NCBI RefSeq assembly: GCF_008124875.1
Contig: NZ_VNIA01000004.1
Span: 238,805 to 302,804, forward strand
Length of the DNA stretch: 64,000 bases
Direction of reading: 5' to 3'
DNA from: Tenacibaculum adriaticum
GTDB lineage: Bacteria; Bacteroidota; Bacteroidia; Flavobacteriales; Flavobacteriaceae
Of the stretch, positions 62,470-64,000 are shown piece after piece; the first letter of the stretch is position 1, and every line of letters starts with the position of its first letter. A model generated the notes under the pieces. The model was not told where the DNA came from. It worked only from the letters and a program-made list of their open reading frames with translations, and made no database searches. A program made the position numbers and the translations under genes.

Positions 62470-62634
62470 ATATAACTGTTTATACTATTTTTTTATTCTT
62501 TCTCTTAAAAAGGAATTTTAGCCTTAAACTTTTTAAGACTTCAAAATCTTTTTATTTAACTGGTTTGTGGCACATAAAAAAACAATAACTGCTATAACCG
62601 TTTCCAATTACTAAGGTTTTATCCGTTTTAATTT

Positions 62635-62732
62635 TTAAAATTTTAATTTGAAAGATTCGCTGTAGTGTCTAATTACTTTATAGTTTTTATACATAATAGT
62701 GTTAAATTATGTAGCTTTTTTAGAACGGGTCA
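62635..62732 (-). mobile_element. Relic of an IS3-family element: left end and first codons of orfA
   Basis: On the minus strand the relic starts TGACCCGTTCTAAAAAAGCT (62732 down), which looks like an IS3-family terminal repeat. The ATG at 62694 begins MYKNYKVIRHYSESFKLK, the typical start of Bacteroidota IS3 orfA. The frame then ends in a stop after 19 codons and the remainder of the element, including the other end, is missing. The relic lies 11 bases from repeat A. Confidence 0.65.
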
Positions 62733-62743
62733 ATATTGCAGGT

Positions 62744-62862
62744 AACGTGTTTGTGTATGATTAGTGGCGTGTTTAAGTAACTAATTTAGCAAATAAAAAC
62801 CGAATAGAAAATCCGCGAGGATTTTCGTAAATAGACTAGAACTAGCCATTAATTATACACTT
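62744..62862. repeat. Structured repeat copy A, left of the YdeI-CDGSH gene
   Basis: Direct repeat of 63555-63673 at an offset of 811 bases. A 50-bp core (62781-62830) is identical between copies and the 37 bases before it match at 30. The core holds a perfect 8-bp hairpin GAAAATCC-GCGA-GGATTTTC (62807-62826). The unit starts AACGTGTTTGTGTATG and ends TTATACAC, weakly inverted ends. Confidence 0.85.
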
Positions 62863-62877
62863 TGTTGTAAAACGTTT

Positions 62878-63519
62878 TTATTTTTCCAATTGTTTATGCG
62901 AACCGTCACAATTAGGCATTCGTTTTGATAATCCACAAATACAATCATTTAATCCTTTTCCGTTAAAAATTCTATCCATATTTTTTTCTATTCTAGATAT
63001 TCGAGTTTTTGATTGTTTTGATTGTGCAAAGTGTAAAAGATAACCTCTTTTTCTACCTTCAGTTAGATTATTAAAGGCACTTTCAAAGTCAGAACTTTCT
63101 TTGAATTTTGTCATTAGTTCTTCAGGAATCTCAAAGTCAGATGTTTGCTTTTTCTTTACTTCTATTCCTGCTTTTTCTACTTCAACAGCTTCAAAAATAA
63201 AGGCTTTTATCTCAGCCGTCATGTTTTCAATTTCGCTAAAATGTGTAAACCTTATTTGACGTGTTGCCTGCACGTTTTCCGTTTGCTGGATCAATATGTT
63301 ATGTGTGTCTTTCAGTAAAACACCTTTGAAAAAATTAAGTGCACAATATTCTTTAAAACCATGTATAATTAAGATATTGGACTTTTTATATGTGTAACAA
63401 GGGACACCCCATTTTAATTCTTCAGTTAAGCCGCAATCAAGAACTAAGCTTCTTAACATCTCCATTTCTTTTTGCCATTGGACGGCATTGCTTAAAAATT
63501 CATCAACCTTTGGATTCAT
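62878..63519 (-). CDS. YdeI-family protein with a C-terminal CDGSH iron-sulfur motif
   Basis: The 213-residue protein has a DUF1801 domain (about 12-115, ELKWGVPCYTYKKSNILIIHGF and CALNFFKGVLLKD), a YdeI helical region (about 150-185, AFNNLTEGRKRGYLLHFAQ) and at the end C-x-C-x2-S-x3-P-x-C-D-G-S-H (Cys193, Cys195, Cys204, His208), the 3-Cys-1-His site of a [2Fe-2S] cluster. The first two parts are common in YdeI proteins; the iron-sulfur tail is an added module. The gene is bracketed by direct repeats A and B, a sign of a mobile cassette. Confidence 0.88.
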   Translation of the reverse strand: MNPKVDEFLSNAVQWQKEMEMLRSLVLDCGLTEELKWGVPCYTYKKSNILIIHGFKEYCALNFFKGVLLKDTHNILIQQTENVQATRQIRFTHFSEIENMTAEIKAFIFEAVEVEKAGIEVKKKQTSDFEIPEELMTKFKESSDFESAFNNLTEGRKRGYLLHFAQSKQSKTRISRIEKNMDRIFNGKGLNDCICGLSKRMPNCDGSHKQLEK

Positions 63520-63554
63520 ATTTTTCTATTTCGAATCTTTCTTAAATGTTGCTC

Positions 63555-63673
63555 AACGTGTTTGTATATGGTTTGTTGCGTGGTTAAGCACCTAATTTAG
63601 CAAATAAAAACCGAATAGAAAATCCGCGAGGATTTTCGTAAGTAGGCTAGAACTAGCAATTTTTTATATACGT
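63555..63673. repeat. Structured repeat copy B, right of the YdeI-CDGSH gene
   Basis: Copy of repeat A in the same orientation, identical over 63592-63641, with the same hairpin at 63618-63637. Its end TTTATATACG matches the copy A end closely, then similarity stops where the IS110 leader begins, so the IS seems to have inserted at the repeat terminus. Confidence 0.85.
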
Positions 63674-63712
63674 CTTAAGTTAGCAATTGTTTAAATTTAG
63701 AGTTATAAATCA

Positions 63713-63869
63713 GAAAGAAAGAAGCGTAGAATAAGGTTATGATATACGTGGAAACCTAGATTTGGTCAACATTGATAATCCCTACGCTTTTACTACTTCA
63801 AATTCGTTCAGTTCTGTGAGAGTTAGATCTCGATTTTAAGTTGTTGAATTGTAGGTAGTTCTTTCTTTC
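63713..63869 (+). ncRNA. Candidate bridge RNA in the IS110 left end
   Basis: GAAAGAAAGAA (63713-63723) is complementary to TTCTTTCTTTC (63859-63869). Inside, AAGCGTAG (63722-63729) pairs with CTACGCTT (63782-63789) and encloses AGGTT/AACCT (63734-63738, 63753-63757) with a 14-base loop. A second unit is suggested by AATTC/GAATT (63801-63805, 63846-63850). Two loops in a closed domain of about 157 nt fit the bridge RNA that guides IS110 recombinases. The folding is by eye. Confidence 0.45.
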
Positions 63870-63884
63870 CAATCTTTTTTTCTT

Positions 63885-64000
63885 ATGGATAAAAATAAAC
63901 AATTTTTAGGAATCGACGTTAGTAAAGAAGTTATAGATGTGTATGATTCTCAAGGAATTTGGCATCAGTTTAGAAATGACGTTTCTGGTTTTAAGAAGTT
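63885..64000 (+). CDS. IS110-family transposase, N-terminal part
   Basis: The first 38 codons read MDKNKQFLGIDVSKEVIDVY and continue as a RuvC-like strand pair. GIDVSK with Asp11 is the hallmark first catalytic block of DEDD recombinases of the IS110 family. The rest, including the C-terminal serine domain, lies beyond the window. An upstream guide RNA candidate supports the IS110 rather than IS1111 type. Confidence 0.88.
   Translation, partial: MDKNKQFLGIDVSKEVIDVYDSQGIWHQFRNDVSGFKK

What the first reader, a model, noticed from the sequence alone, without database searches (positions are those of the whole stretch)
63713..63869. Bridge RNA candidate in the leader of an IS110-family element
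Seen: about 210 non-coding bases before the transposase, an 11-bp complementary pair closing a 157-nt domain, an inner 8-bp stem with a nested hairpin, and a second weaker stem-loop. Known: IS110 recombinases use a structured RNA from the element's left end with two loops that pair to target and donor DNA. The two-loop layout and size fit. The outer pair is purine-rich and could be chance.
Basis: partly seen in the sequence, partly recalled or inferred. Interest (0 to 1): 0.65.

Follow-up and report, generated by a model that had tools for sequence, protein, structure and literature searches.

The report
Guide RNA of an IS110 element
The stretch is very probably the guide RNA of a jumping gene found in many marine flavobacteria: one loop matches the DNA site it jumps into, the other matches its own ends, and related copies show these guides changing together with their targets.

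Summary
The finding holds. Window 63713-63869 lies in the 211-nt leader (63674-63884) of an IS110-family element that the contig end cuts off 30 nt past the window. In 29 distinct leaders 14 of 29 helix pairs show compensatory changes; slid registers score at most 0.096 against 0.315. Both loops carry readable guides. Target loop: ATATACGT (63742-63749) equals the left flank; CAACA (63767-63771) is complementary to TGTTG, the right flank of other copies in this genome (this copy's right flank is not assembled). Donor loop: TCAGTTCT (63808-63815) equals the right end on four other contig ends; TTAAG (63836-63840) is complementary to the left end CTTAA. In relatives the left target guide follows the flank (63 distinct guides: 7.41 of 11 matches, 5.72 permuted, 0 of 20000), and one left-donor-guide base follows the right end in 104 of 104 parsed loci. 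This is bridge-RNA behaviour: a new member of a known kind. Not predicted: the target is the end of cassette-like genes, in several genomes in long one-strand arrays near a tyrosine recombinase below the integron-integrase cut-off. Transcription, binding and movement were not testable here.

The parts
62744..62860 (+). Dispersed repeat, uninterrupted copy; ends ATTATACAC TTTGTTG, the kind of site the element uses
   Evidence: blastn to the repeat before the element (C4:301548-301664); read
62878..63519 (-). 213-aa gene between the two repeats (DUF1801, OmdA, CDGSH below its cut-off): looks like one gene cassette
63555..63671 (+). Second copy of the repeat, interrupted by the element at its end
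   Evidence: reads ...CTAGCAATTTTTTATATACGT|CTTAAG
63663..63673 (+). Left target (TTTATATACGT), last 2 nt = core position
63674..63683 (+). Left end of the element, CTTAAGTTAG; +3..+10 (TAAGTTAG) resembles a Bacteroidetes -7 box (consensus recalled)
   Evidence: start shared by copies with different flanks in a blast-anchored listing; the counts are not independent because left ends were found there with a pattern containing these letters
63713..63869 (+). Bridge-RNA core region given in the finding
63713..63723 (+). 5' arm of closing stem
63859..63869 (+). 3' arm of closing stem
63721..63729 (+). Target-loop stem, 5' arm (helix 1)
   Evidence: 4 of 9 pairs with double changes
63782..63790 (+). 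Target-loop stem, 3' arm
63742..63749 (+). Left target guide ATATACGT (within the 12-nt stretch 63739-63750)
   Evidence: identical to the left flank; guides covary with flanks in relatives
63766..63771 (+). Right target guide TCAACA
   Evidence: CAACA is the reverse complement of TGTTG, the right flank of 3 of 4 contig-end copies in this genome, the fourth having TGTTA
63793..63796 (+). Donor-loop stem, 5' arm (pairs with 63855-63858)
63808..63815 (+). Left donor guide TCAGTTCT
   Evidence: found in the right end CTCAGTTCTT of this genome; concordant base in 104 of 104 parsed loci
63836..63840 (+). Right donor guide TTAAG
   Evidence: reverse complement of left end CTTAA
63855..63858 (+). Donor-loop stem, 3' arm
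63885..64000 (+). Start of IS110-family transposase (MDKNKQFLGIDVSK...), cut off by the contig end
   Evidence: a complete relative (L011) matches NF033542, PF01548 and PF02371

Best explanation
The leader encodes a bridge RNA (seekRNA) of an IS110-group insertion sequence. The first loop pairs with both strands of the target: the left guide reads TATAYACNN-type sequence, the right guide reads TGTTR. The second loop pairs with the element's joined ends: the left guide reads TCAGTTC of the right end, the right guide reads CTTAA of the left end. The RNA-bound DEDD recombinase excises the element as a circle and inserts it precisely between ACNN and TGTTR, without duplication, at the ends of cassette-like genes. 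The joined ends may also rebuild the promoter for the RNA (TTG, 20 nt, TAAGTTTG/TAAGTTAG). Shown here: element boundaries, RNA fold, guide identity, guide-target and guide-donor covariation. Inferred from the IS110 literature: transcription, binding, strand exchange, circle and promoter use.
For: Fold covariation. Left target guide against flank: 155 loci 7.74 of 11 matches, 6.46 +/- 0.08 permuted, 0 of 20000; one locus per distinct guide (63) 7.41 vs 5.72 +/- 0.15, 0 of 20000; 25 guides lacking TAYACR 7.04 vs 4.57 +/- 0.29, 0 of 20000; sliding the flank by 1-4 nt drops the mean to 1.5-4.3. On a tree of leaders with guides removed, guide position -4 needs 17 changes, and guide/flank there is A/A 93, C/C 11, G/G 8 of 126 leaves. 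Left donor guide base vs right-end base: 77 T/T, 27 A/A, 0 discordant of 104 parsed. Rare right target guides: AAACA with TGTTT (L143, L144, one genome), GAACT with AGTTA (L142), GAACT with AGTTC in the remnant L175 (read). Left end CCTAA goes with guides TTAGG (L161) and CTAGG (L173, 4 of 5 pair). Own-genome right ends on four contig ends. Transposase of L011 similar to IS621 and ISCro4. By eye, some copies outside the repeat share only the guide-sized TTATAYAC stretch, e.g. L049, L072.
Against: No RNA or protein data. Eight of 155 loci match the guide at 3 or fewer of 11 positions: L031, L038, L044, L095, L140, L172, L179 and L166, the last through a mis-placed left end; L038, L044 and L095 have donor-like flanks. 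A second variable base of the right end, CAGT[T/A]CTT, is not followed by the left donor guide (27 loci keep a mismatch). The commoner right donor guide TCAAG (63 loci) has a C.A mismatch at +4 of CTTAA. Target position -1 is T in at least 84 of 126 leaves, else mostly G or A, whereas in IS621 the second core T is nearly invariant. The right target guide is nearly constant: 96 of 103 parsed pairs are CAACA (59 match 5 of 5, 30 pair with TGTTA, 7 with other flanks); of 7 rare ones 3 are concordant, L152 and L176 are not, two were parsed out of register. The closing stem is not part of the IS621 bridge RNA as described in the passages read.
Confidence: 0.94

Rival explanations
1. The leader is a cis-acting structured 5' UTR that regulates transposase translation, with no role in target choice.
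For: It sits directly before the ATG and is strongly folded.
Against: A UTR would not copy the flanking target and the element's other end, nor change with them. It could still have this second role.
Confidence: 0.03
2. Loop-flank identity is inherited by descent: related elements share both guide and repeat target, without functional pairing.
For: Most copies use one repeat family, and many loci are near-identical copies.
Against: One locus per distinct guide still gives 0 of 20000; minority guides follow minority flanks; repeated changes on the tree; the register is exact to one nucleotide. Permutation does not remove all relatedness, and the tree is from short leaders.
Confidence: 0.02
3. 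The structure is a chance fold of purine- and pyrimidine-rich DNA.
For: z only -2.30 for the single sequence; shuffles of the leader give a left-flank match of 8 or more in 56 of 5000.
Against: Covariation; left-flank and right-end matches together and in order in only 3 of 5000 shuffles.
Confidence: 0.01

Closest known systems
IS621 bridge RNA (IS110 group; PMC11208160 and PMC11208158, passages read)
   Same: RNA in the left end before the recombinase gene; two loops; left guides pair the bottom strand, right guides the top strand; left donor guide reaches only the first core base
   Different: A closing stem joins both loops; second base of the target core not fixed as T; the target is a cassette-end repeat (IS621's REP target is recalled); no Rfam match for the leader
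ISEc21 seekRNA (IS110 family; PMC11187229, abstract and passages read)
   Same: Upstream non-coding region with both target strands matched
   Different: Target of ISEc21 lies in genes of certain IS3-family transposases
ISKpn4 and ISPst6 (IS1111 family, attC-targeting; PMC11187229 passages)
   Same: Target one end of gene-cassette recombination sites
   Different: IS1111 elements usually carry the RNA downstream of the transposase gene and have subterminal inverted repeats; here the RNA is upstream (subterminal repeats were not tested)
ISCro4 transposase (PDB 9t56)
   Same: Match over nearly the whole transposase of relative L011, E 1.6e-39
   Different: Target and RNA not compared

Membership tests
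IS110-group element with bridge RNA | Transposase with N-terminal DEDD RuvC domain and C-terminal Transposase_20 domain with catalytic serine | tested here: met
   L011: NF033542 198.1 bits (cut-off 140), PF01548, PF02371; D, E, D, D and ESGSS line up with ISCro4 in the printed alignment; residue roles from the IS621 paper, correspondence inferred. The window itself shows only the first codons.
IS110-group element with bridge RNA | Long non-coding left end before the gene | tested here: met
   211 nt; in L011 the right non-coding end is about 38 nt
IS110-group element with bridge RNA | Structured RNA with two internal loops | tested here: met
IS110-group element with bridge RNA | Target loop matches both target strands and covaries | tested here: met
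   Left guide; right guide nearly invariant, 3 concordant rare loci of 7
IS110-group element with bridge RNA | Donor loop matches joined ends and covaries | tested here: met
   104 of 104 at one base, a second base not followed; right donor guide partial (mismatch at +4 in 63 loci)
IS110-group element with bridge RNA | Shared core dinucleotide with near-invariant second T | tested here: inconclusive
   Target -1 is T, G or A; donor TT is constant in 106 parsed right ends, but the parsing pattern required it
IS110-group element with bridge RNA | Junction promoter | tested here: inconclusive
   TTG at -21..-19 in 101 of 106 parsed right ends; left-end TAAGTT was part of the parsing pattern, so only speaks for it; promoter consensus recalled; no transcript data
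IS110-group element with bridge RNA | RNA is made, bound by the recombinase and needed for movement | not testable with these tools
   -
Integron (as the nature of the target) | Integrase above the integron-integrase cut-off | tested here: not met
   0 of 166 genus genomes over the TIGR02249 cut-off, where each matched stretch is scored apart; as whole proteins two examples score 207.7 and 198.6 bits, cut-off 265; the middle of the profile is unmatched in listed examples such as G155
Integron (as the nature of the target) | Array of one-strand cassettes, gene followed by repeat, beside the recombinase | tested here: met
   Met in L267 and L268 and in four genomes picked from the listings; not everywhere: G006's listed array is far from its listed recombinase hits, and 6 of 18 genomes with 20 or more sites show no strand bias at p 0.05
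Integron (as the nature of the target) | attC architecture RYYYAAC...GTTRRRY, cut by the integrase | tested here: inconclusive
   Ends read ...AAC and GTTR, only partly RYYYAAC/GTTRRRY, by eye; motif recalled; no attC model or assay was run

The most novel reading that the evidence does not exclude
These elements are specialised parasites of a widespread, under-recognised cassette-capture system of Flavobacteriaceae: superintegron-like arrays, up to about 140 kb, run by a XerA/IntI-like recombinase without a match to the middle of the integron-integrase profile. The bridge RNA reads the part of the cassette recombination site that every cassette must keep, so the element can enter any cassette, and its guides drift (TAYAC, TAGCC, CTACC and others) as the arrays' sites diverge.
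Probability: 0.45. Interest if true: 0.72.

Novelty: new member of a known kind. Interest (0 to 1): 0.5.

Why it matters
It gives a large natural set of reprogrammed bridge RNAs on one scaffold with readable targets, useful for learning which guide positions matter. It also ties an IS110-group RNA to cassette-end targets, described in the passages read for IS1111 elements, and points to large cassette arrays in a phylum where the IntegronFinder 2.0 passage names a complete integron only for Salinibacter ruber among Bacteroidetes proper (PMC9024848).

Tried and rejected
Rfam search of 62600-64000 found nothing up to E 1, so the RNA assignment rests on the session's own model. Two transposase families searched in the own genome found nothing: the gene is split by assembly, shown by left ends on contig ends and right ends on four contig ends. 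The idea that the core is CT or TG was rejected: junctions of many copies put the cut after ACNN and before TGTTR, and uninterrupted sites agree. The idea that remnants bounded by the left donor guide are mobile mini-elements was tested with one exact pattern: 2 of 397 family genomes, one copy each, and 0 of 166 genus genomes; deletion between the two TCAGTTCT repeats is enough to explain them.

Rows dropped: three leaders before the 29-row alignment (L015, L073, L074); L136 (3' end cut) from then on; L167 (no left end); L144 (short flank); 24 loci with truncated or aberrant leaders. The first parse mis-placed the left end in about a dozen loci and was replaced, which still mis-places L166. 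Right-donor-guide parsing failed for several loci (odd strings there, L173 among them). In one search only copies on a contig with a listed recombinase hit were counted (45 of 50 typed), from capped listings.

Full report
What is there. The window is the end of contig C4 of its genome; the contig stops 30 bases past the window. The element begins at 63674 with CTTAAGTTAGC: copies with different flanks become alike from this base on. Its leader runs 211 nt to the ATG at 63885. The rest of this copy is missing, but the genome holds other left ends at contig ends and four contig ends that carry what reads as the transposase C-terminus followed by CTTGTTTTTTACCTCAGTTCTT and then TGTTR, so the element is a multicopy repeat at which the assembly broke. 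Two further right-end matches are internal remnants (L270, L273). Relatives have complete copies: 52 of 166 genus genomes have a DNA match to the leader and gene start at E 0.001, some of them weak, and a covariance model of the leader matches 90 of 397 family genomes. Named relatives are mostly Flavobacteriaceae such as Tenacibaculum, Polaribacter and Winogradskyella (best 80 of 123 kept; the window's own record may be left out there). The transposase of the complete relative L011 is IS110 family (NF033542 above cut-off; PF01548 and PF02371) and matches IS621 and ISCro4 over most of its length. A plasmid search found only short matches in 2 records.

The RNA. An alignment of 29 leaders less than 96% alike gives 29 pairs in six helices, 14 with changes on both sides; slid registers fall far below, and four of five measures exceed all 500 shuffles. 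The closing stem is supported by a separate test only, in which relatedness was not controlled.

The guides. Between the strand GGTT of the inner stem and the nested hairpin lie 12 nt, of which 11 stand in register with the last 11 bases before the element. In the window these contain ATATACGT, equal to the flank. In 155 loci the match is 7.74 of 11, against 6.46 when flanks are permuted; the result holds for one locus per distinct guide and for guides that lack the common motif; eight loci match 3 or fewer. Examples of natural reprogramming (guide / flank): L120 ACTATAGCCGT / ACTATAGCCGT; L169 AATATACAAAT / AATATACAAAT; L150 TCTACC / TCTACC; L178 ATAATAGGCGT / ATTATAGGCGT; L143 TTAAGCAT / TTAAGCAT. 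On a tree of 126 leaders built without the guides, guide position -4 needs 17 changes and position -5 needs 37; the guide equals the flank in at least 112 and 98 of 126 leaves there. The tree is from short sequences, so the counts are rough. The right target guide is CAACA in 96 of 103 parsed pairs, with flank TGTTG in 59, TGTTA in 30 and others in 7; of seven rare ones, AAACA/TGTTT (2 loci of one genome) and GAACT/AGTTA (1) follow, L152 and L176 do not, two are out of register. The left donor guide carries T or A before CAGT, and the right end carries the same letter in 104 of 104 parsed loci; a second variable base of the right end is not followed in 27. The right donor guide ends in AAG in most loci where the left end starts CTT, and in AGG in the two loci with a readable guide where it starts CCT (L161, L173).

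How it probably works. By the IS621 studies (PMC11208160 and PMC11208158, passages read), left guides pair the bottom strand and right guides the top strand, cleavage is 3' of the core, and left target plus core is joined to the right donor. The junctions here fit: left junction ACNN|CTTAAG keeps the target's NN; right junction CAGTTCTT|TGTTR keeps the donor's TT. Uninterrupted sites read ACGTTGTTG, ACGGTGTTG, ACATTGTTG and similar, so no duplication is seen. Directly joined ends would place TTG 20 nt upstream of TAAGTTTG or TAAGTTAG (TTG there in 101 of 106 parsed right ends), like a Bacteroidetes promoter (consensus recalled); this is inference.

The target. The site is the end of a dispersed repeat that directly follows genes of the opposite strand: an open run of at least 80 codons on the minus strand ends within 45 nt of the right junction in 74 of 97 loci, against 2, 1 and 0 of 97 at 60, 120 and 180 nt further. 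In the genus the 16-nt site ATTATAYACGKTGTTR occurs in 119 of 166 genomes, up to 82 exact copies, in some genomes on one strand only (0/56, 0/41, 0/29, 0/28, 0/27; reversed-pattern control 0 in these). Of 18 genomes with 20 or more sites, 12 are strand-biased at p 0.05 and 6 are not (G016, G035, G043, G048, G055, G164). In four genomes that I picked from the listings (G008, G009, G011, G013) the sites listed begin 1.5 to 12 kb from a tyrosine recombinase; in G006 the listed sites near 1.06-1.13 Mb are far from its listed recombinase hits, which speaks against a fixed link. Of 45 element copies on a contig with a listed recombinase, 18 lie within 60 kb, 2.8 expected if uniform. That recombinase matches NF040815 just below and above its cut-off in two examples and integron integrase below its cut-off. 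I therefore call the system integron-like, not an integron. The own genome's best integron-integrase match is 4.1e-21 and it has three exact sites.

Compared with what is known. Bridge RNAs of IS110 elements are established, so this is a new member. IS1111 elements that target attC are known (PMC11187229 passages). Searches that combined integron or attC terms with Flavobacteriaceae, Flavobacteriia, Polaribacter or Bacteroidetes (listings seen, passages of three papers read) gave no description of such arrays in Flavobacteriaceae chromosomes; a phage of Polaribacter carries predicted attC sites, one of them shown active with IntI1 (PMC9892861 passages), and a review lists Bacteroidota among phyla with integrons (PMC8618304 passage). 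Absence from this library is weak evidence.

Noticed in passing
L267, L268; genus genomes: Cassette-like genes each followed by the same repeat, in several genomes in long one-strand arrays, near a XerA/IntI-like recombinase below the integron-integrase cut-off: superintegron-like systems in Flavobacteriaceae.
   Followed up: partly
L160, L163, L170, L174, L178: At least five of 90 family-level leader loci (the printed list was cut) are short remnants: left end, target loop and left donor guide fused directly to the target's right half, as if the DNA coding the donor guide had served as the right end.
   Followed up: partly
L074 (right target guide), L156 (left donor guide), L164 (both): Palindromes, mostly of the CCCGA...TCGGG kind, are inserted inside guide segments of otherwise intact leaders (the second one in L164 differs).
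   Followed up: no
L038, L044, L095 flanks: Copies at sites that resemble the element's own joined ends rather than the usual target, suggesting donor-donor recombination or tandem insertion.
   Followed up: no
L006 and L083 (own genome C1:130251 and C1:440852); L270 and L273: Repeat copies carrying CTTAAGTTAGCA in place of TGTTAGCA, and solo right-end remnants: possibly scars of lost copies.
   Followed up: no
window 62878-63519: Putative cassette gene with DUF1801 and OmdA domains and a CDGSH-like tail below its cut-off.
   Followed up: no
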